19,462 nucleotides of DNA from Chloroflexota bacterium (lineage in GTDB: Bacteria > Chloroflexota > Ktedonobacteria > Ktedonobacterales > Ktedonobacteraceae). Shown here piece after piece: positions 3,722 through 14,525 of this stretch. Position 1 is the first letter of the stretch. Each line of letters starts with the position of its first letter. Both the position numbers and the translations under genes were made by a program. The notes under the pieces are model-generated. The model was not told the DNA's origin, made no database searches, and saw only the letters and a list, made by a program, of their open reading frames with translations. The stretch spans positions 1 to 19,462 of the forward strand of contig CADDYT010000123.1 in the NCBI GenBank assembly GCA_902810755.1, in the 5' to 3' direction.

Positions 3722-4918
3722 TCAGTGAATGAGCAGTGAGGGCAGGTGGGGCAGCAGCGACCAGAAGGTGGTGCCGAGCAGCGCGATGGTGAGCCAGAAG
3801 GCAAACCAGCCAGAGAGTTTGAGCGTCTGCTGCATCACGGCGTGGAAGCCGACCGGGTTGTCTGTGCGGAAGGCGCCGGTGAGGGCGACGACGGCGATGG
3901 GCAGCGTCCAGAGGGTGATGAGCAGCAGGTGTGGTGCGCCGTGTGGCAGGGCCAGCGCAACGATAATGCCATAGGCGGCCAGCAGCAGCAGGAGATAGAA
4001 GACGCGGCTCAAACGCAGGCTGAAGAAGGTGGCCAGCGTGTGCTTTCCCGCCTGCACATCGCTCTCCATGTCGCGCAGGTTATTGGCATGGATGACCGCC
4101 GCCGCCAGCAGGCCCAGTGGGAGGCTGTAGAGCAAGACCATGCGATCAAGGGAGCCGATCTGCACGGCGTAGGCGCTCAGCGTGAGCAGGGGGCCGAAGA
4201 TGCCGAAGGCGACCAGCTCCCCCAGCGTCAGTGAGGAGAGCGAGCGCGTGGTGGCGCTGTAGAAGAAGGCGCAGAGCAGCCCGACAAGCCCGAAGAGGAT
4301 GATGGGCCAGCCGCCATTGAGGGCCACCACCAGATCGAGCAGGCCGCCGAAGGCCAGCATAAACAGCCCGACGCTGAGAACGGTGACCGGACGCACAACC
4401 GCCTGCTGGATCAGCCCGCCGGGGCCGAAGGCGTTGCTGGTATCGATGCCGCGCAGGTAATCGTAATAGTCGTTGACCAGTTGCGCCCCGGACTGGATCA
4501 GCACGACGGCGACCAGCAGGCCGAGGAAGTGCAGGATGTGGAAATGACCGAATGGCGGTTTCTGTGGAATAGTCTGCGTCCACGCCAGCGCGCTGCCGAC
4601 GACGACGGGCGCGAGCGAAAGCGGCAGGTAGGCCGGTCGCAGGCCATCCCACCAGAGATGAAGCCATTCAAAAGGGCCGCGTCGGTATTCCGCCGGGTGG
4701 ACGACCAGCGCCCCCGGCAGGCTGACCGAGCGTGTCGCCGTGACGGGATGCACCTCAATCTCCGGCTGCAGAGCATTAATGGCCTGAAATGAATCTAGCG
4801 GAATGGTCGGCACCTCTTCCGCCTGCACCGTTTCCGCCGTAACGATTTGTGAAGTGACCGGTTTTCTGGTTTTCTGGCCGGTATTTTTCTGGTTCCTGTC
4901 TTCGTGCTTATCTTGCAT
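3722..4918 (-). CDS. menA: UbiA-family prenyltransferase, probable 1,4-dihydroxy-2-naphthoate prenyltransferase (MenA-type)
   Basis: This is an integral membrane prenyltransferase that would attach a polyprenyl chain to an aromatic acceptor, probably 1,4-dihydroxy-2-naphthoate in menaquinone synthesis. The two Asp-rich motifs that bind Mg-diphosphate are visible: NDYYDYLRGID (149-159, with N149, D150, D153) and NNLRDMESD (279-287). About eight to nine hydrophobic helices run from residue 97 to the end, and DGLRPAYLPLSLAP at helix 1 is typical of MenA. The 398 aa are longer than the usual 290-310 because of a polar extension of about 85 residues before helix 1. ATG 4918 was chosen because the 38 in-frame residues upstream look non-coding; its AGAGGGG site is rather far, at 14 bases. 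No other men gene is nearby, so the acceptor is inferred from motifs and another UbiA role is possible. Confidence 0.82.
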   Translation of the reverse strand: MQDKHEDRNQKNTGQKTRKPVTSQIVTAETVQAEEVPTIPLDSFQAINALQPEIEVHPVTATRSVSLPGALVVHPAEYRRGPFEWLHLWWDGLRPAYLPLSLAPVVVGSALAWTQTIPQKPPFGHFHILHFLGLLVAVVLIQSGAQLVNDYYDYLRGIDTSNAFGPGGLIQQAVVRPVTVLSVGLFMLAFGGLLDLVVALNGGWPIILFGLVGLLCAFFYSATTRSLSSLTLGELVAFGIFGPLLTLSAYAVQIGSLDRMVLLYSLPLGLLAAAVIHANNLRDMESDVQAGKHTLATFFSLRLSRVFYLLLLLAAYGIIVALALPHGAPHLLLITLWTLPIAVVALTGAFRTDNPVGFHAVMQQTLKLSGWFAFWLTIALLGTTFWSLLPHLPSLLIH

Positions 4919-5050
4919 AATGTACGATACGTCCCCTCTGGTATCAAATGGAAATATGGAGCAAGAACAGAAAAAAGCTCTTACAGAGAATACGCTACAA
5001 CTCCGAAAAACGTATACGCCGTCTGCATGCATAGCTGATTACTACCTCTA

Positions 5051-5079
5051 AGTATACACCATTTTGTCGGCGCTGACAG
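5051..5079 (-). promoter_or_regulatory. Sigma-A promoter of the prenyltransferase gene
   Basis: On the minus strand a -35 CTGTCA (5074-5079) and a -10 TATACT (5051-5056) are separated by 17 bases. It lies about 130 bases upstream of the chosen ATG, in the gap after the translin-family gene, so the prenyltransferase is probably not dependent on read-through. Confidence 0.55.
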
Positions 5080-5095
5080 CGGGAAAAGTGCGCAA

Positions 5096-5749
5096 TCATA
5101 ATGGTTCGTGTCGATGGTGCTGAAGCTCGTCTCGCAGGGCAAGCATGGTACGTTGCAATTGTGCCTGTTCCATCGCGATGGTCAGGTCGCCGCGTGTTTT
5201 TTCCAGGATGCCGCGTGCGCTATCGGTAGTGCGGCGCAGGCCAGCGGTGATGGCGTCGGGGAAATCGATGGAGATCAGAATAGCATAAATATCATCCATG
5301 TAGCCCAGGTAGACCTCGCAGGTTTCGATGTTGCCCCGGCGCAACTGGTCGAGCAGGTAGCGGCGCAACTCGCCCACCGCTTCTCCCAGGCCGTTGAGGT
5401 ACGCGGCCCAGCCAATGCCAAGCTGTTCCGCGCCGGGCAGAGGCTGATGCTGGACAAGGGCGCTGAAGGTGCAGGCCTCGGCAAATTCTTTCTGCGCGTC
5501 CTGTACGAAGCCGGCATAGTAGATATCCTGGTGGTCGCGCAGGTCGATTGCCATTTCCTGGAGCAGGTCTGCCGCCTGCGCCAGCAGGCGGGCCGCCGTC
5601 TGGAAGTCCTGCCGGTGGGCGGCGCGTATGCTGTTGGCGCAGAAGCGAATGGCGCTGCGTGATTTGGGCAAGGCCCGTTCGCGCGCCGCGTTCTTCAGCG
5701 CCAGGTGTTCCGTCGCCTCGCGCCCGATACTCTCAAAGTTTTCCGCCAT
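5096..5749 (-). CDS. Translin-family protein
   Basis: This is a 217-aa, all-helical protein of the translin/TRAX family, whose eukaryotic and archaeal members form hollow octamers that bind single-stranded RNA or DNA; TRAX-type subunits cut RNA. Family landmarks are QKEFAEA at 86-92, GLGEAVGELRRYLLDQL at about 120-136, GNIETCEVYLGYMDDIYAIL at 139-158 and GLRRTTDSARGILEKTRGDL at 170-189. The QExxEA-like spacing places Glu88 and Glu91 where TRAX has two catalytic glutamates; the third position falls at GNIET, where the acid appears to be Glu instead of Asp. It is near the family's usual length. The ATG at 5749 has only a weak ribosome site (GCGAAG), but the promoter just upstream is strong. Such proteins are sometimes misannotated as haloacid dehalogenases; no HAD motif (DxDxT) is present. 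Confidence 0.8.
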   Translation of the reverse strand: MAENFESIGREATEHLALKNAARERALPKSRSAIRFCANSIRAAHRQDFQTAARLLAQAADLLQEMAIDLRDHQDIYYAGFVQDAQKEFAEACTFSALVQHQPLPGAEQLGIGWAAYLNGLGEAVGELRRYLLDQLRRGNIETCEVYLGYMDDIYAILISIDFPDAITAGLRRTTDSARGILEKTRGDLTIAMEQAQLQRTMLALRDELQHHRHEPL

Positions 5750-5800
5750 CGTAGCTTCGCTTTCTCACACTCGTTTGTCTGCCGGTTCGCCTGTACGCCC

Positions 5801-5829
5801 ATTATAGCGAAGCTGCGATGGCCTTGCAA
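5801..5829 (-). promoter_or_regulatory. Strong sigma-A promoter of the translin-family gene
   Basis: On the minus strand a -35 TTGCAA (5824-5829) and a perfect -10 TATAAT (5801-5806) are separated by 17 bases, about 50 bases upstream of the ATG at 5749. It is the closest match to consensus in the window. Confidence 0.8.
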
Positions 5830-5864
5830 CCATAGCCGTTGGAGGTACTAGCCAGAACGACATC

Positions 5865-5975
5865 CGTGTCATGCTGAAACAACAATCGTGTCATGCGCAG
5901 CGGCAGCGAAGCATCTGAGTGAGTAAAATTACATAGCGGTGACCTCAGAGCTTCGCTGCCGCTGCGCATGACACG
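5865..5975. repeat. Family B repeat forming a long near-perfect hairpin
   Basis: Two 26-base arms, 5887-5912 and 5950-5975, are perfect reverse complements; each begins or ends with CGTGTCATGCGCAGCGGC or its complement. The pairing continues inward for about six more bases (TCTGAG/CTCAGA) after a one-base bulge, leaving a loop of about 24 bases. A truncated extra start of the family (CGTGTCATGCTGA) lies at 5865-5877. The element sits between the stop of the 144-aa protein gene and the translin promoter, so transcripts from the right would fold into this hairpin. Confidence 0.9.
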
Positions 5976-6003
5976 GCCTGTGAAAGTGCGTTTTGAAACT
6001 TCC

Positions 6004-6438
6004 TTATATGAGCCGCCGCACCTCGATTTCGGGCGGGAAGCTCATGTCGTTAAGGTCGCCGGACCAGAACAACTGCTTCATGATCTCGGCGACGGCGTAG
6101 AGCAGGTGTTGCAGCGCCGCCTCGCGCCCCTGCTCGAAGGCGGCGCTGCCCCGGTAATCGCCAAGTTGCGCGAATAGCGGGTTGACCGGTGCCCGCTCGC
6201 TCATGCGCACGAGATACATCTCCATCTTCAAGGCTCCCTGTTCAACAGGCACCATGATACGCAGTTGTGGCACCGAGTTGATGATGTCCAGGCGGTAGAA
6301 CACGCCGTAGTGGTCGCGGGAGGCCTGGAAAATGGAGACCTCCGGGACGCAGTCGTCGTTATCATAGCCGTACTCTGGATGTTCCATCTCTACTCCTAAA
6401 TCTGCCAGGATGTTTTGAACTTGTTCGTGAATATTCAT
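6004..6438 (-). CDS. Unrecognised small acidic protein, 144 aa
   Basis: I do not recognise the family. The product is 144 aa, soluble, without signal peptide or membrane helix. It begins with a short amphipathic helix (residues 1-15), then an acidic, Tyr-rich segment (about 18-31). Alternating hydrophobic residues at about 32-80 suggest a beta sheet. A helical stretch at about 88-130 includes QLGDYRGSAAFEQGREAALQ. The pattern resembles small alpha/beta sensor or secretion-chaperone-like folds in general layout, but I see no diagnostic motif. The ATG at 6438 follows GAGAGGG with a four-base gap. The neighbours give no functional hint: an alpha/beta hydrolase upstream and a long hairpin repeat downstream. 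The coding call rests on the length of the frame, the ribosome site and a sensible amino-acid composition. Confidence 0.7.
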   Translation of the reverse strand: MNIHEQVQNILADLGVEMEHPEYGYDNDDCVPEVSIFQASRDHYGVFYRLDIINSVPQLRIMVPVEQGALKMEMYLVRMSERAPVNPLFAQLGDYRGSAAFEQGREAALQHLLYAVAEIMKQLFWSGDLNDMSFPPEIEVRRLI

Positions 6439-6490
6439 TCTGCCCTCTCTCAGGGGCGAATACAGGATCGCCCGAACCTCTCTCTGCTTG

Positions 6491-6518
6491 CTTCTAGCCT
6501 GATAAGACCAGTTTTCAA
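6491..6518 (-). promoter_or_regulatory. Possible promoter of the 144-aa protein gene
   Basis: On the minus strand TTGAAA (6513-6518) and TAGAAG (6491-6496) are separated by 16 bases, about 53 bases upstream of the ATG. The -10 is poor, so this is only a candidate. The rest of the gap from 6439 to 6697 holds nothing else I can support. Confidence 0.3.
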
Positions 6519-6697
6519 ACGACTACCGGCACCTACGGTTGCCCCTTCATCCTGCTATTCTGTGCATGCGCAGGGAAAACGGAAATGTCATCCACGCAAT
6601 AGGCGAACGTTGACTCCCAGGCGTCCATTGATGGTGCGCGCCGGTGATGGATGGTAACAACCGAAAAACGGTAATGAGGAAGGCGCAGGGAGATGGC

Positions 6698-8434
6698 TCA
6701 CTGGAAGGCCGGCTCCTGCATGGCGGCGAGGCAGGAACCGTCAGGCTGCGTGGCGGGCTGTTGCAGGAAGGCGATCATGATGGTGTCCGGGCAAATGTTG
6801 GTGGCGAAGACGCCGTGACCGGTGGCGGGGAAGAGGAAAAAGTAGCTGTGGCTCAACGTTTGAGCCGCCAGCCTGCCATTGGAGGGCGGGGTGATGGGGT
6901 CGTATTCGCCGGAGAGGATGAGCGTAGGAATGGAACTGACGACGGGCTGCTTCTGCGCCGTCGGAACCAGTTGCTGGTGCCAGTCCTGGCAGATGGTGAA
7001 CTGCCCCAGCAATCTCGCCTGGAAGCCCGACCGCAATTGTGGGCGCAGGACGGTGATCGCCTGATCCAGCTTGCTCTCCGTGACAAAGCCAATATCTTCC
7101 CCGCACTCGACAGCATAGTACATGCCATCGCTGATGCCGTTCGACGGGCCGAAGGGAATGATGCTGGCAAGATCTGAGAGCGAGTGATAGTTCCCTTTGT
7201 CCACCTGCATAATCAGTTGCGGCAGCAAGGGTATGGCCGGGGTATCGTACATGGCGCTGAAGATGATCTGGGCGAAATTGTCGCCGTTCAACAGCAGCGT
7301 GCCTGCTCCACGTACCGTGACGACCTTTGGCTGCGCGTTGAGCCTGGCGACCAGCCCGTAAAAGACGCTATCGAGATGGGGATACTCGGCATTGCAGGAA
7401 GGACTGGCGGCGCAGCCGTGAAAGAGGACATCCAGCGCGTGTTGCAGATCGAATGGTTCCTGAGTGAAGGCGTTGAGCTGGGTCGGCACGGTCGAATCGA
7501 GGATAACGCTGCGAATATCGGCGGGGAAGAGGCGCATGACCGTCAGGGCCAGGCGCGTGCCATAGGAGACACCGTAGAGATCGGCCTGCCGGTAGCCCAG
7601 CGCGTGAATCAGGTCATGGACATCGGTGGCGTCGGCGATGGTGGTGTACGCCTGGACATTGATGCCCGCTTTGAGCAGGCGATCATGGCAGTCTATTCCG
7701 GCCAGCACGGGGCCACCGGGATAGTTGCTGAGCGGGTCGAGTTCCGGGCAGTCCAGGGCCGGTCTGGAATAGCCGGTGCCGCGCTGGTCGAGCAGGATCA
7801 GGTCATGGCCCATCGTAAAATCTTCCAGGTTCGAGGAGTCGATGAAGACGCCCACATCATCCAGCAGGCCGCCGCCGGGTCCGCCGCTCAGGTAGATCAG
7901 CGGGTCGGCAGGCGTCGCCGTCCCCGGCGCTTTGAAGATGGCAACGGCCAGTTGAATGGTCTTCCCTTCCGGCAGGCTCGCGTCTTCCGGCACGGTGAGG
8001 TAGCCGCATCTGAGCTGCTTGCCCTCAACAATGCCGGAGCCAGGCATGAAGGGGCAGTGTGCATACTGAAAATGGCTGGCCGCGACAGCGGTTCGCGCGG
8101 GCGTTGAACGGGCATGAATGCGGAGCAGCAAGGTGTATGTCCCGGCGAAGATAACCAGCAGCGCGCCGAAAACTGCGGCGATGCTATACAGAATGGGGCG
8201 ACGACCGGCGCGCTGCGGCTGTTGAGGGGAGATGGTATCCGGTTCAGGTGCGGCGGCAGGCGTCTCTTCTTGCCGCGTTTGCGCCTGCGAGCTGCTATAA
8301 TCCATATAAGGCAGGGAGTCATCCAGGTATGGAAAGGCGTCATCTGGGCCGGTTCCAGTCGCGCTCATTGCGGCCCCCGGCAGGCCAGAACGGCTGTTGT
8401 CATCATTATCTACAGGCTCATGGTAATCGTACAT
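6698..8434 (-). CDS. Membrane-anchored alpha/beta hydrolase, TAP-like/prolyl aminopeptidase type
   Basis: This is a serine hydrolase of the alpha/beta fold group that includes tripeptidyl aminopeptidases and prolyl iminopeptidases. The 578-aa protein has an acidic, Pro/Gln-rich cytoplasmic N-terminus (1-78), one membrane helix at about 80-105, and an outside catalytic domain from about 120. Visible are the oxyanion-hole loop SGGPGGG (183-189), LLDQRGTGYSRP (214-225), the nucleophile elbow GVSYGT with Ser290, and the C-terminal TAP-like part with GEYDPITPP (Asp512) and TGHGVF (His540), completing the triad. Cysteines in the catalytic domain could form disulfides, which fits an extracytoplasmic position. 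ATG 8434 was chosen because GGTGGGGG lies nine bases upstream; an ATG eleven codons earlier lacks a good site. It is probably a surface peptidase, but an esterase role cannot be excluded. Confidence 0.85.
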   Translation of the reverse strand: MYDYHEPVDNDDNSRSGLPGAAMSATGTGPDDAFPYLDDSLPYMDYSSSQAQTRQEETPAAAPEPDTISPQQPQRAGRRPILYSIAAVFGALLVIFAGTYTLLLRIHARSTPARTAVAASHFQYAHCPFMPGSGIVEGKQLRCGYLTVPEDASLPEGKTIQLAVAIFKAPGTATPADPLIYLSGGPGGGLLDDVGVFIDSSNLEDFTMGHDLILLDQRGTGYSRPALDCPELDPLSNYPGGPVLAGIDCHDRLLKAGINVQAYTTIADATDVHDLIHALGYRQADLYGVSYGTRLALTVMRLFPADIRSVILDSTVPTQLNAFTQEPFDLQHALDVLFHGCAASPSCNAEYPHLDSVFYGLVARLNAQPKVVTVRGAGTLLLNGDNFAQIIFSAMYDTPAIPLLPQLIMQVDKGNYHSLSDLASIIPFGPSNGISDGMYYAVECGEDIGFVTESKLDQAITVLRPQLRSGFQARLLGQFTICQDWHQQLVPTAQKQPVVSSIPTLILSGEYDPITPPSNGRLAAQTLSHSYFFLFPATGHGVFATNICPDTIMIAFLQQPATQPDGSCLAAMQEPAFQ

Positions 8435-8495
8435 GAAGCAAAGCCCCCACCAGAAAGTTTTTATCATTCATTGAAGCATATGAATGTTCATCACT

Positions 8496-8524
8496 TTTAT
8501 AACTCATCTTTCACAAAAAAGCAA
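8496..8524 (-). promoter_or_regulatory. Sigma-A promoter of the alpha/beta hydrolase gene
   Basis: On the minus strand a -35 TTGCTT (8519-8524) and a -10 TATAAA (8496-8501) are separated by 17 bases. It lies about 60 bases upstream of the chosen ATG, immediately after the stop of the SUI1-family gene. Confidence 0.65.
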
Positions 8525-8545
8525 TATCGCATCTGATGCGTTGCG

Positions 8546-8911
8546 CTATCCCCCGGCGCGTTTGACTTTATAGCCGAGAGCAGTCAATTTCGCCATCACT
8601 TTCTCGCAGTGGTCGCCCTGGATTTCGATGGTATCGCCTTTGACGGTGCCACCGGAGCCACAGAGCTTCTTGAGGTGTTGCGAAAGCTGTGCCAGCGCCT
8701 GCTGGTCGCCCGGCACGCCGGTAATGACGGTGACCGTCTTGCCGCCGCGCCCTTTCCGGTCGCGCATCACGCGCACAATGCCGTTGCCTGTTTTGCCTGT
8801 CGCTGCTGGCGGCGCGGACTGCTCGCAGCGGCAGCGTTTCCAGGGCTGTCCGCAGGTGGGGCAGGTCTCGATTCTACCTGTATCGGTCGAATAGACCAGT
8901 CGGTCTGCCAT
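8546..8911 (-). CDS. SUI1/YciH-family translation factor-like protein with zinc-ribbon-like insert
   Basis: This is a bacterial homologue of eukaryotic/archaeal initiation factor 1, 121 aa. The N-terminus RLVYSTDTGRI (4-14) is the one found in E. coli YciH. It is followed by four cysteines, C17, C20, C27 and C29, that could bind zinc. The SUI1 domain occupies about 44-121, with the basic loop RDRKGRGGKTVTVITGV and the C-terminal LCGSGGTVKGDTIEIQGDH segment. Such proteins bind the small ribosomal subunit and affect initiation fidelity, though the bacterial role is not settled. Two adjacent ATGs exist; the second (8911) is five bases after GAGGAG and is preferred over 8914. The gene follows a lipoprotein gene on the same strand after 123 bases and has its own extended -10 promoter. 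Confidence 0.9.
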   Translation of the reverse strand: MADRLVYSTDTGRIETCPTCGQPWKRCRCEQSAPPAATGKTGNGIVRVMRDRKGRGGKTVTVITGVPGDQQALAQLSQHLKKLCGSGGTVKGDTIEIQGDHCEKVMAKLTALGYKVKRAGG

Positions 8912-8958
8912 CATGGCTCCTCTCTCTGTATCTGTAAAGACGCAGGTTGTACAGCAGT

Positions 8959-8964
8959 ATTGTA
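8959..8964 (-). promoter_or_regulatory. Extended -10 promoter of the SUI1-family gene
   Basis: On the minus strand the sequence TGGTACAAT gives a -10 TACAAT (8959-8964) preceded by the TGn extension. A -35 at the right distance is poor. Transcription would start about 40 bases before the ATG at 8911. Confidence 0.45.
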
Positions 8965-9034
8965 CCATAGCTGAAAAGGGCCAATGTGTGGCCGGAGAGA
9001 GGTCAAGTCGGCGATGCGCACTATCCGCCTATCC

Positions 9035-9739
9035 TCACAGCGCCACGATGCGCAGGCTGCTGATGCGCAGGATGGCCAGGGTACTATTGAAGGTGAGCGG
9101 GCCGTTGGAGAGCGTATCGGTACCATTGCTATTGGCATGGGCAATTTCCGTGCCGTCGACGAGCAGGCGCACCTCGTTATCCTGCACTTCGAGCCGGTAG
9201 GTATGCCAGTCGTAGCCGGGTTCGTAGTCGATGGGCAGGCAGCAGCTCCTGGGCATATTACCGGACGGATCAATGGTGGCCTGGGCCTGTGGATGGCTGC
9301 CGAAAGGGCCTGGCTTCTTCAGGTCAAGCACGCCGACCTGGTAGCCGTCTTTCCCCTTTTGCTTTGCCGCCGCGAACAGGAAATTCCCGCCGTGATCTTG
9401 CGGCAGGCGCACCACCTGCAGGTGAATTTCAATGGCATAATTGCTCACTACCGGCTTATACGGGATAGCAAGCGTAGCCGAACTGGTGGAATTAACCTCT
9501 ATCTCTTCCTGCCCCTGCGCCACCGTCCAGCCCTGCGTTCCGGTCCAGTCGGAGAGGCCGCGCGACCAGCTCGCCTGAAAAAGCACCGTCCCACCCGGAA
9601 CCGACGGTGTAGGCGTCCCCGCCACCGTTGGCGTCGAGGCGCGTGTCGTCGATGGCGTCCCCGTACCGGAAGAGCAGGCGGCCAGCACACAGATAAGCGC
9701 ACCCAACAGCAACGCCTGCGATACACGTTTCTGTAACAT
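9035..9739 (-). CDS. Secreted lipoprotein with a concanavalin-like (DUF1080/LamG type) domain
   Basis: The 234-aa product starts with a lipoprotein signal: positive residues, hydrophobic stretch 9-21 and lipobox LAAC with lipidated Cys22. A Thr/Pro/Ser linker follows to about residue 48. The rest looks like a beta-jellyroll of the concanavalin A-like group: VLFQASWSRGLSDWTG, a YAIEIHLQVVRLP strand pair, WHTYRLEVQDNEVRLLVDG near 178-196 and a final RISSLRIVAL strand. WHTYRLEVQDNEVRLLVDG is the hallmark of DUF1080 and LamG-like domains, which bind or act on carbohydrates. No catalytic residues are obvious, so binding is as likely as hydrolysis. The ATG at 9739 is eight bases after AGGAG. The protein would be anchored on the outer face of the membrane. 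Confidence 0.85.
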   Translation of the reverse strand: MLQKRVSQALLLGALICVLAACSSGTGTPSTTRASTPTVAGTPTPSVPGGTVLFQASWSRGLSDWTGTQGWTVAQGQEEIEVNSTSSATLAIPYKPVVSNYAIEIHLQVVRLPQDHGGNFLFAAAKQKGKDGYQVGVLDLKKPGPFGSHPQAQATIDPSGNMPRSCCLPIDYEPGYDWHTYRLEVQDNEVRLLVDGTEIAHANSNGTDTLSNGPLTFNSTLAILRISSLRIVAL

Positions 9740-9785
9740 GATTCATGCTCCTGAAGATTCTTCACGTTCTCAAAACTCTCATCAG

Positions 9786-9819
9786 CAGGGCGACAGCTAT
9801 CGCGTTGACTGTGGCCCTG
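9786..9819. repeat. Imperfect inverted repeat in the leader of the lipoprotein gene
   Basis: Arms 9786-9796 and 9809-9819 pair over 11 positions with one mismatch around a 12-base loop. It lies 47 bases upstream of the lipoprotein ATG, so it would form a hairpin in the leader mRNA if transcription starts further upstream. The surrounding 331-base gap, 9740-10070, has no convincing gene; I could not find a clear promoter there. Confidence 0.4.
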
Positions 9820-10070: not shown

Positions 10071-11798
10071 TTATGGTGTGCTGCGCTGCCTCGCGACTGC
10101 GTTGTAGATGGCGAGTATGATGGCAAGCACAATCAGGCTGATTACTGAGTACAGGGCGCTGTAAACGAGAATGATAATCACAGCATTGCCATCAAAGGGC
10201 CTGTACGTACCGGCCACGCTGAAAGTGGTGGTAAGGACAATGCCAATCAGGCTGATACCGGTCACGAGACGGATATTGCGCTTATGGCTTGATCTTCTGT
10301 ACGCGCTTAAGAGCGTCAGCCCGACAATGAAGCCAGCAATTGCCAGACCGACATCTCCATACCAGAGGATTGGCACCAGCCGATTTATCAGATCAGGCAC
10401 GAAAGTAGCAATTCCTCCCACGATAAGGCCCACCCAGGGACCGTAGACGGCTGCAAAGTAGAAGACAACGACAAATTCGGCGCAACTGAGAGCAAGGAAG
10501 CCATCGATGAAAATGCGGTTATTCCCTATCAAAAAGGTAGACCAGATAGGAAGGTAGGCGTAGATACCATGATCTAACCAGACCTCGAGCAGGCCGCACA
10601 ACACAAGGCCAACGATCATGGCTATCAGTTGACGTTTGCCGATACGCCAGACAGAGGCGGCCTTTGCTCCTGTCGGCTGTGGCACGGCATGACCAAAGGC
10701 TTGCTGTTGCAGGTGCGCCGGAGTTGCCTGCTGCGCCAGCACGGTGGGTTTCACCGCCGGCTGCGCTGGCTGTGCCAACGGGGGTGGCGTGACCGGGGTG
10801 ACCGGCGGCTTCGCCAGCACGGTGGGGGCGTAGCCGGAAACATTGCCGGAAGTGGTGGCTGAGGGACTGGCGGCAATGTCTTGCAGTTTGCGTTTGACCG
10901 CTGCCATCGTAGGGGGGCGTTTTGTCTCGTCCATCTCGACCATTTGCATGATGAGAATACCGAGATCGGTGGGAATGGACTGGCCGGATGCCTGCAGCGG
11001 GGGGAAGCGGAATGGAGCGGTGGCCGGATGGCGACCAGAGATGAGCTGGTGCAGCACGGCGCCCAGGCTGTAGATGTCGGAGCGAGGCGTCGTCTGTGCC
11101 CTGCCGTACTGTTCTGGCGAGGCGTACCCGGCGGAACCGAAATAGGCGGTATCTCTGGCCTGACCGGGCTTGAAGTGACGGGCAATGCCGAAGTCGATCA
11201 GGTAGATATGCCCGTCCGGGGAGCGCATGATGTTCGACGGCTTGAGGTCGCGGAAGATGATCGGCGGCTGCTGGCTGTGCAGGTAGTCCAGTACGGTGCA
11301 GAGCTGGATACCAACCTCAAGGGCCTCTTTGACGGGCAGCTTCTTGCCAGGAGATCGCTCAAGATAGTCTTCCAGCGTCTCACCCTTGATATAGGTCATG
11401 ACGAGATACCAGCGCCCGGAATCGGAAAAATGATCGTAGATGTTGGGCAGGTGATGATGCTGGAGACCGGCCAGGATCAGCGCCTCTTTCTTGAAGTTGT
11501 CAGTCGCCTCAGCAATCTCCTGTGAAGAGAGGCCGCTCTGGCTCATCTCTTTGACGGCGACCGTGCGATTGCCCAGTTGCGTATCCTCAGCGATATAGAC
11601 TGCTCCCATGCCCCCTTTGCCCAGCGTCGTCAGAATGCGGTACCTCTGCTTGAGCAGGGAATTGGGCAGCAGGCGCCCGGTAGCAGTATTAAAGCCAACG
11701 CCGCTACTGGCAACCTGCAAGGCCCGCCCGCAGGTGCGGCAATAGGACGCGCTCGCCTGGTTGACGCTGCTACATACAGGACAGGTAATGGTAGCCAT
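10071..11798 (-). CDS. Ser/Thr protein kinase with N-terminal zinc ribbon and six-helix ECF S-component-like C-terminal domain
   Basis: This is a Hanks-type kinase of 575 aa. Residues 6-23 form a zinc ribbon (C6, C9, C20, C23). The kinase domain spans about 53-310: Gly loop LGKGGMGAVY (59-68), AVKE lysine Lys83, catalytic FRDLKPSN (182-189, Asp184), DFG (202-204) and ASPEQY (226-231). The HRD histidine is Phe, and Arg and Asp are kept, so activity is expected. A Pro/Ala/Gln linker (about 311-385) joins it to six hydrophobic segments (about 388-566) with YGPWVGLIVGGIATFVPDLI (452-471) and GDVGLAIAGFIVGL, which resemble vitamin-binding S components of ECF transporters. ATG 11798 was chosen because AGAGGGG lies eight bases upstream; a GTG at 11804 is too close to it. 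Targets are unknown. The kinase family is certain; the S-component relation is an inference from pattern. Confidence 0.9.
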   Translation of the reverse strand: MATITCPVCSSVNQASASYCRTCGRALQVASSGVGFNTATGRLLPNSLLKQRYRILTTLGKGGMGAVYIAEDTQLGNRTVAVKEMSQSGLSSQEIAEATDNFKKEALILAGLQHHHLPNIYDHFSDSGRWYLVMTYIKGETLEDYLERSPGKKLPVKEALEVGIQLCTVLDYLHSQQPPIIFRDLKPSNIMRSPDGHIYLIDFGIARHFKPGQARDTAYFGSAGYASPEQYGRAQTTPRSDIYSLGAVLHQLISGRHPATAPFRFPPLQASGQSIPTDLGILIMQMVEMDETKRPPTMAAVKRKLQDIAASPSATTSGNVSGYAPTVLAKPPVTPVTPPPLAQPAQPAVKPTVLAQQATPAHLQQQAFGHAVPQPTGAKAASVWRIGKRQLIAMIVGLVLCGLLEVWLDHGIYAYLPIWSTFLIGNNRIFIDGFLALSCAEFVVVFYFAAVYGPWVGLIVGGIATFVPDLINRLVPILWYGDVGLAIAGFIVGLTLLSAYRRSSHKRNIRLVTGISLIGIVLTTTFSVAGTYRPFDGNAVIIILVYSALYSVISLIVLAIILAIYNAVARQRSTP

Positions 11799-11892
11799 AT
11801 CCACGTCCCCTCTTCTTGCACATAGACTTCGGTGAAAATCAATATCTCTATTCTATCATACTTCGAGGTTGAGATGGAAGTCTTTTTCATAT

Positions 11893-11911
11893 ATTGATAC
11901 AAAATTGATAC
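11893..11911. promoter_or_regulatory. Tandem 8-mer direct repeat, possible operator upstream of the kinase gene
   Basis: ATTGATAC occurs at 11893-11900 and again at 11904-11911, giving an 11-base spacing, about one helical turn. It lies about 100 bases upstream of the kinase start, in an AT-richer patch where its promoter is expected. I could not identify that promoter with confidence. Confidence 0.35.
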
Positions 11912-11913
11912 GG

Positions 11914-12099
11914 CAGCCGGGCATTGAAAATCGTTCGGCCTTGCTGCTGATCGCGCTGGATGGCCCGGCCCGTGTCTACCTGGGCGACCACCGGGCAAGC
12001 GACGTCATCGGCGGCTACCTCTTCGGCAGCGGCTGGCTGGCCCTCTGGTTCAGAATATACCTGCTCTTGCGCGGCAAACATATCCTGGCAAGCTCATAG
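11914..12099 (+). pseudogene. C-terminal remnant of a PAP2-family phosphatase
   Basis: The plus-strand frame here reads ALLLIALDGPARVYLGDH followed by RASDVIGGYLFGSGWLALW. This matches the last catalytic motif of PAP2/phosphatidic-acid phosphatases (SRxxLGxHxxxDVxxGY), including the Arg, His and Asp, and the helix after it. Only about 60 residues remain, ending at TAG 12097-12099. The earlier motifs (KxxxxxxRP and PSGH) are absent, and upstream sequence becomes AT-rich and non-coding, so this is a truncated gene. It sits between the kinase start and the groES promoter. A complete short protein is very unlikely. Confidence 0.65.

Positions 12100-12878: not shown

Positions 12879-14525
<1,647 letters not shown>

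What the first reader, a model, noticed from the sequence alone, without database searches (positions are those of the whole stretch)
10071..11798. Ser/Thr kinase fused to an ECF transporter S-component-like membrane domain
The kinase has a zinc ribbon in front and, in place of the usual PASTA or single-span sensor, a six-helix domain with the YGPWVGLIVGG...DLI and GDVGLAIAGFIVGL patterns typical of S components, which bind vitamins or metal ions. If this is right, the protein could be a one-piece receptor whose kinase responds to a small nutrient bound in the membrane. No ECF A, A' or T subunits are encoded nearby, so transport is less likely than sensing. This is the best candidate in the window for an undescribed signalling design.
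Basis: partly seen in the sequence, partly recalled or inferred. Interest (0 to 1): 0.72.

Follow-up and report, generated by a model that had tools for sequence, protein, structure and literature searches.

The report
Kinase carrying a vitamin-transporter membrane domain
This bacterial gene joins a protein kinase to a membrane domain that descends from the substrate-binding part of a vitamin-type transporter, which suggests that a transporter part was turned into a sensor; what it senses is unknown.

Summary
Window 11798-10071 (-) encodes 575 residues: zinc ribbon, complete Ser/Thr kinase, disordered linker, six-helix domain. The domain alone passes Pfam's cut-off for PF07155 (ECF S component). 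Its AlphaFold model (pLDDT 89, pTM 0.87) matches ECF S-component chains in the first 21 rows of the PDB second look.
Relatives show the origin. In 17 of 47 Ktedonobacteria genomes a free-standing homologue was found, beside EcfT in 17 of 17 and a double ECF ATPase in 15. Twenty kinase-fused copies lie in 15 of those 47; one genome has two directly behind the transporter operon. Free and fused domains form one clade apart from other Chloroflexota (100/100). Fused copies lost the AXXXA helix-1 motif for EcfT docking (both alanines 15/15 free, 0/39 fused), so ECF-driven transport is unlikely. Most conserved polar residues of the transporter are also lost (R46 15/15 to 0/39; D76 is kept in 26), so the same ligand is unlikely, and no replacement pocket is clearly conserved. 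Receptor function is the best reading, not shown. The fusion arose at least twice. S-fold histidine kinases are published (PMC11109136); for Ser/Thr kinases our searches found nothing.

The parts
10071..11798 (-). whole gene, 575 aa from the ATG at 11798 (the GTG at 11804 is an alternative start)
   Evidence: P0002
11727..11783 (-). zinc ribbon cysteines C6, C9, C20, C23 (residues 6-24)
   Evidence: read from the sequence; weak profile matches, below cut-off
10902..11642 (-). Ser/Thr protein kinase domain, residues 53-299
   Evidence: PF00069 E 5e-41; catalytic residues K83, D184, N189, D202
10656..10856 (-). linker, residues 315-381, predicted disordered
   Evidence: pLDDT under 50 in the full-length model; 25 of 74 positions of 308-381 vary among four close relatives
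10074..10655 (-). six-helix S-component-derived domain, residues 382-575
   Evidence: PF07155 over cut-off for the domain alone; model; PDB matches; hhalign of fused domains against free ECF S components 99.6%
10572..10637 (-). helix 1 of the S domain, residues 388-409; carries IAMIVGLV where the transporter homologues have AXXXA
10503..10547 (-). predicted beta hairpin in loop 1, residues 418-432
   Evidence: DSSP of the model
10428..10442 (-). GPWVG scaffold motif, residues 453-457
   Evidence: G 39, P 36, W 32, V 36, G 37 of 39 fused copies and 14-15 of 15 free ones
10317..10334 (-). GFIVGL scaffold motif in helix 4, residues 489-494
   Evidence: glycines kept in 35 and 36 of 39 fused and 15 of 15 free copies

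Best explanation
It is a membrane-bound Ser/Thr kinase whose six-helix membrane domain descends from the substrate-binding S component of the Ktedonobacterial ECF transporter. SHOWN by computation: fold, homology, operon context of the free relatives, and absence of the EcfT-docking motif. INFERRED: the domain no longer docks to an ECF module; it acts as a receptor whose outer pocket, covered by loop 1, takes up a small or lipid-like molecule different from the transporter's substrate. Because a disordered linker of about 67 residues separates it from the kinase, the signal is unlikely to pass along a rigid helix. More likely, ligand binding alters how S domains associate in the membrane, which brings the cytosolic kinases together for trans-autophosphorylation. 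The ligand is unknown.
For: Fold and family. Family spread; 20 fused genes in 15 of 47 class genomes. Origin: free homologue next to EcfT in 17 of 17 genomes and next to a double ATPase in 15 of 17 (in L038 the ATPase halves exceed NCBIfam ECF cut-offs, and EcfT exceeds that of PF02361); L038 has EcfAA'-S-EcfT-kinase/S-kinase/S on one strand within 7.3 kb; free and fused Ktedonobacterial domains form one clade 100/100, fused domains 100/99. Not a transporter: both AXXXA alanines in 15/15 free and 0/39 fused sequences, the criterion that PMC11109136 section 10 uses for receptors. Kept under selection: in one fused subfamily S-domain dN 0.10-0.37 against linker dN 0.37-0.66, S-domain dN/dS 0.11-0.24 in six pairs; five scaffold glycines kept in 35-39 of 39. 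D76 and W85 of the free family kept in 26 and 30 of 39, the window included. Repeated recruitment: one origin of all S-fused kinases is rejected on the kinase tree, p-AU 2e-33. Linker.
Against: Most free-family polar residues are lost in the fused copies: R46 0, N72 1, N86 3, N91 4, E119 2, K142 1, D159 0 of 39 (gaps at 119, 142 and 159 in 2, 8 and 2 rows). Within fused subfamilies those columns are not clearly more conserved than others: 8/15 vs 67/174, 3/15 vs 37/152, 2/12 vs 37/153; the window's own group, 14/14 vs 138/165, is too close to judge. So ligand binding has no firm positive evidence. The second AXXXA alanine alone is kept in 11 of 39. In the one pair where the linker ratio could be computed, linker and S domain have the same dN/dS, 0.237. 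No ligand, dimer or kinase target could be tested.
Confidence: 0.58

Rival explanations
1. The S-derived domain is only a membrane anchor or a protein-protein docking domain. It keeps the fold but has no small-molecule ligand; the kinase is controlled by partners, membrane tension or abundance.
For: Most transporter polar residues lost and no clear conserved replacement; loops vary widely in length; flexible linker.
Against: A six-helix domain kept over very divergent kinases and changing more slowly than the linker in protein sequence is more than an anchor needs, and it was joined to separate kinase lineages at least twice.
Confidence: 0.3
2. It still works with a shared EcfT/EcfA module: a transporter S component whose kinase reports or controls uptake (a true transporter-receptor).
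For: EcfT-family genes (PF02361) are present in 15 of 15 genomes with fused copies; two fused kinases lie directly behind an ECF operon in L038; 11 of 39 fused copies keep the second AXXXA alanine.
Against: No fused copy of 39 has both alanines; the first is Ile, Leu or Val in 37, and mutation of either alanine stopped ThiT from binding the ECF module according to PMC11109136 section 10. In 9 of the 15 genomes no free S component of this family was found.
Confidence: 0.07
3. Chance resemblance: an unrelated six-helix domain with glycine-rich helices.
For: In the full-length protein the Pfam score is just under the cut-off (26.0 vs 26.7); best Foldseek E-value is only 0.014; no sequence match among solved structures.
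Confidence: 0.02

Closest known systems
ECF transporter S components of the PF07155 (riboflavin-type) family, here the Ktedonobacterial EcfAA'-S-EcfT operons
   Same: Sequence-homologous six-helix fold; GPWVG and GFxxGL scaffold kept
   Different: Fused behind a kinase; AXXXA docking motif and most conserved polar residues lost
Sensor histidine kinases with a 5TMR (LytS/YpdA/BtsS-type) membrane domain, described as S-component-fold receptors in PMC11109136 (abstract, passages, sections 10 and 11 seen)
   Same: S fold as the membrane part of a kinase; AXXXA lost, with Leu, Ile, Val in its place
   Different: Ser/Thr kinase instead of histidine kinase; kinase at the N-terminus on a flexible linker instead of on the extension of helix 6; clear sequence link to ECF S components of the same class, while the paper calls the origin of the shared fold elusive
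PknB/Stk1-type PASTA kinases
   Same: Ser/Thr kinase of the same large family (NF033483 205 bits against a cut-off of 450)
   Different: No PASTA-repeat match; six-helix domain instead

Membership tests
ECF transporter S component | six-helix S fold | tested here: met
ECF transporter S component | family profile PF07155 over its curated cut-off | tested here: met
   domain alone 28.8 vs 26.7; full-length protein 26.0, just below
ECF transporter S component | AXXXA motif in helix 1 for EcfT docking | tested here: not met
   window Ile and Val at the two alanine positions; 0 of 39 fused copies have both
ECF transporter S component | encoded or working with EcfA/EcfT | tested here: inconclusive
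   none in the window; no genome held for the window; EcfT-family genes in 15 of 15 relatives' genomes
ECF transporter S component | high-affinity substrate binding | not testable with these tools
   needs biochemistry
Hanks-type Ser/Thr kinase | PF00069 with catalytic Lys, HRD/FRD Asp, Asn, DFG | tested here: met
   E 5e-41; residues
5TMR-type S-fold receptor kinase | S fold without AXXXA | tested here: met
   criterion from PMC11109136
5TMR-type S-fold receptor kinase | PF07694 profile match | tested here: not met
   not among the families listed for the window protein up to E 10; one fused relative, P0035, carries it
5TMR-type S-fold receptor kinase | output domains follow helix 6, extra helix H0 before helix 1 | tested here: not met
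   kinase is N-terminal; no seventh membrane helix in the models
PASTA kinase | extracellular PASTA repeats | tested here: not met
   no PASTA-repeat family among the Pfam matches; the whole-protein PASTA-kinase model is far below cut-off and matches the kinase side only

The most novel reading that the evidence does not exclude
Ktedonobacteria turned one ECF S component into a general-purpose membrane receptor: freed from EcfT by losing AXXXA, its pocket remodelled for new ligands, then moved between at least two kinase lineages, in one genome still encoded directly behind its parent transporter operon. This would be a new class of one-piece receptor Ser/Thr kinases and a traceable case of a transporter part becoming a receptor.
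Probability: 0.5. Interest if true: 0.8.

Novelty: new variant of a known kind. Interest (0 to 1): 0.63.

Why it matters
PMC11109136 showed that S components and histidine-kinase receptors share a fold but stated that the evolutionary origin remains elusive because no conclusive trees could be built (section 11). Here the transporter homologue, the fused kinases, an operon-like locus that holds both, and a tree with an outgroup exist in one bacterial class, so the change from transporter part to receptor can be followed and tested. It also gives Ser/Thr kinases a possible new kind of input domain.

Tried and rejected
Riboswitch clue to the ligand: Rfam gathering search of the window and seven operon loci gave 0 matches. 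Operon neighbours as a ligand clue: SAM hydroxide adenosyltransferase beside two operons (L102, L104), PLP enzymes beside three (L100, L101, L046), nothing consistent among the 10 neighbours scanned. NCBIfam: the four free S components scanned lean towards the riboflavin S-component model but stay below its cut-off (76-87 vs 99). Solved-structure sequence search of the domain: 0 matches to E 10, so the fold match rests on structure and profiles. Single origin of all S-fused kinases: rejected (p-AU 2e-33); single origin of the four zinc-ribbon ones: weakly rejected (p 0.0285). Whether the free Ktedonobacterial S components form one clade apart from the fused ones is undecided (p 0.377), and a joint clade of HAMP-linked and fused domains is not rejected (p 0.225). 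The tree tool flags long branches among the fused domains, and the six outgroup rows do not form one side of a branch (three lie on the wrong side of the root); the 61-row clade does not depend on that. dS is near saturation, so those ratios are rough; the L031 frame is cut at its start there, so its kinase figures are not used. A shift from Tyr/Phe to Ala at helix-1 position 17 (37 of 39 fused) was considered as a dimer motif, but by helix geometry it lies on the face opposite the old AXXXA and may be core packing; left open. Genomes outside Chloroflexota were not sampled. The protein searches gave proteins with a kinase domain except P0023 (339 aa, whose start looks like the end of a kinase); where a source named the organism it was Ktedonobacteraceae.

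Full report
What is there. The gene at 11798-10071 on the minus strand encodes 575 residues: four zinc-ribbon cysteines (6, 9, 20, 23), a Ser/Thr kinase with its catalytic residues (PF00069, E 5e-41; K83, D184, N189, D202), a linker and a six-helix membrane domain. The domain alone passes the Pfam cut-off for PF07155, ECF riboflavin-type S component (28.8 against 26.7 bits). In the full-length protein it scores 26.0, just under. A direct sequence search of solved structures gave nothing.

Relatives. A first protein search found P0002-P0005 (87-100% identical over the domain) and a distant P0006. Searches with two other family members gave 17 further proteins besides the query and 19 (its own copy P0024 included); all have a precomputed kinase domain except P0023. 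In the class survey 25 of 47 Ktedonobacteria genomes carry the domain; G045 was added by the phylum survey and checked. Reading the open frames gives 20 kinase-fused genes in 15 genomes: G006, G026 (2), G028, G029, G030-G034 (5), G037 (4), G038, G041 (2), G045, G046, G047. Free-standing copies were found in 17 genomes: next to EcfT in 17 of 17, and next to a double ECF ATPase in 15 of 17. The two without it are L054 (G029), where no ATPase is seen in 13 kb, and L026 (G025), a 2.1 kb piece. In L038 the ATPase halves exceed NCBIfam ECF cut-offs. One lone domain without kinase or ECF genes, L041:7922-8479, belongs to the fused clade.

A telling locus. L038 (genome G026) reads, on one strand, EcfAA' 4692-6395, S 6475-7080, EcfT 7171-8082, kinase-S 8178-9800, kinase-S 10208-11929. 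The two kinase types also show the same longest-contig length in three other cases (10564, 5980 and 5415 bases), which suggests that the tandem pair is conserved; this was not checked on the contigs.

Descent. Free S components in other Chloroflexota served as outgroup (L098, L100-L104). Ktedonobacterial free and fused domains form one starred clade (100/100, 61 rows) and the fused domains one clade inside it (100/99, 47 rows). Whether the fused clade arose within or beside the living free copies is undecided. The kinase tree tells another story: the window's zinc-ribbon kinases and the second kinase type are separate lineages, and one origin for all S-fused kinases is rejected (p-AU 2e-33). 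In the zinc-ribbon lineage, close kinases carry WD40-like or other domains instead (read by eye from the sequences, not profiled). The best match to the window's kinase domain in the 47 genomes, 69% identical, is again an S-fused one (G041, L044/L106). So the domain appears to have been freed once and attached to kinases at least twice.

Transport or sensing. PMC11109136 (abstract, passages and sections 10-11 seen) reports that AXXXA in helix 1 docks S components to EcfT, that mutation of either alanine stopped ThiT from interacting, and that receptors with this fold mostly carry Leu, Ile, Val or aromatic residues there. In our alignment both alanines are present in 15 of 15 distinct free sequences; among 39 fused ones the first is present in 1 (37 have Ile, Leu or Val), the second in 11, both in none. 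The window has Ile and Val. Transport through EcfT is therefore unlikely, though EcfT-family genes exist in 15 of 15 genomes with fused copies. In 9 of these 15 no free S component of this family was found; several of the nine are in many contigs, so absence is not firm.

Ligand. Most polar residues fixed in the free family are lost in the fused family: Q36 0, R46 0, N72 1, N86 3, N91 4, E119 2, K142 1, D159 0 of 39, against 14-15 of 15; at Q36 15 fused rows are gapped. D76 (26 of 39) and W85 (30 of 39) are kept, and the window has D76, W85 and D88. That these residues line the pocket is inferred from their conservation, not mapped on a bound structure. At those columns fused subfamilies are not clearly more conserved than elsewhere (8/15 vs 67/174; 3/15 vs 37/152; 2/12 vs 37/153; window group 14/14 vs 138/165). 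The domain is nevertheless constrained: in the window group 33 of 194 positions vary, against 25 of 74 in the linker and 22 of 257 in the kinase. In another fused subfamily dN is lower in the domain than in the linker in all six pairs, though in the one pair with a linker dN/dS the two ratios are equal, 0.237. So the domain matters, but the ligand is new, or absent.

How it probably works. The full-length model (mean pLDDT 71.6) leaves residues 315-381 under pLDDT 50, so a rigid push from membrane to kinase is unlikely. We propose control of kinase proximity by ligand-dependent association of S domains. This is inference.

Novelty. Searches of the paper library for S-component fold with receptor and kinase, ECF with Ser/Thr kinase, transceptor with ECF, and Ktedonobacteria with kinases (listings only, apart from PMC11109136) showed no description of a Ser/Thr kinase with an S-component domain; the main paper's text does not contain the words serine or threonine. 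Only open-licence papers were searched. Source databases do name some of these proteins 'serine/threonine protein kinase/uncharacterized membrane protein', so the two-part nature is visible in automatic annotation.

Noticed in passing
L086:5119-6825, L087:4448-5641, L088:4325-5482, L089:4135-5292: Other Chloroflexota carry the S domain followed by more membrane segments (by eye) and a HAMP region (Pfam HAMP in L086 and L087; L088/L089 by eye). All four lack AXXXA but keep R46, N72 and D76 of the transporter, so they may sense the transporter's own substrate.
   Followed up: partly
L041:7922-8479: A lone fused-type S domain without kinase or ECF genes, directly beside a kinase-S gene.
   Followed up: no
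P0035: A kinase-S protein whose precomputed domains include both PF07155 and PF07694 (5TMR), a possible bridge between the two S-fold families.
   Followed up: no
L091:4420-5391, L092:4843-5784, L099:4626-5603, L105:3382-4275: S-component proteins of about 300-325 aa in which the domain match is split into pieces, as if extra membrane segments were inserted.
   Followed up: no
L102:7208-8014, L104:2729-3442: SAM hydroxide adenosyltransferase genes beside the ECF operon in two Chloroflexota, a possible clue to the substrate.
   Followed up: no
window 12882-14525: Cpn60/TCP-1 family chaperonin on the plus strand (PF00118, 254 bits), opposite a 666-aa open frame without Pfam match.
   Followed up: no
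window A393 (helix 1, position 17 of the free-copy numbering): Tyr in 14 of 15 free S components became Ala in 37 of 39 fused copies; unexplained.
   Followed up: no
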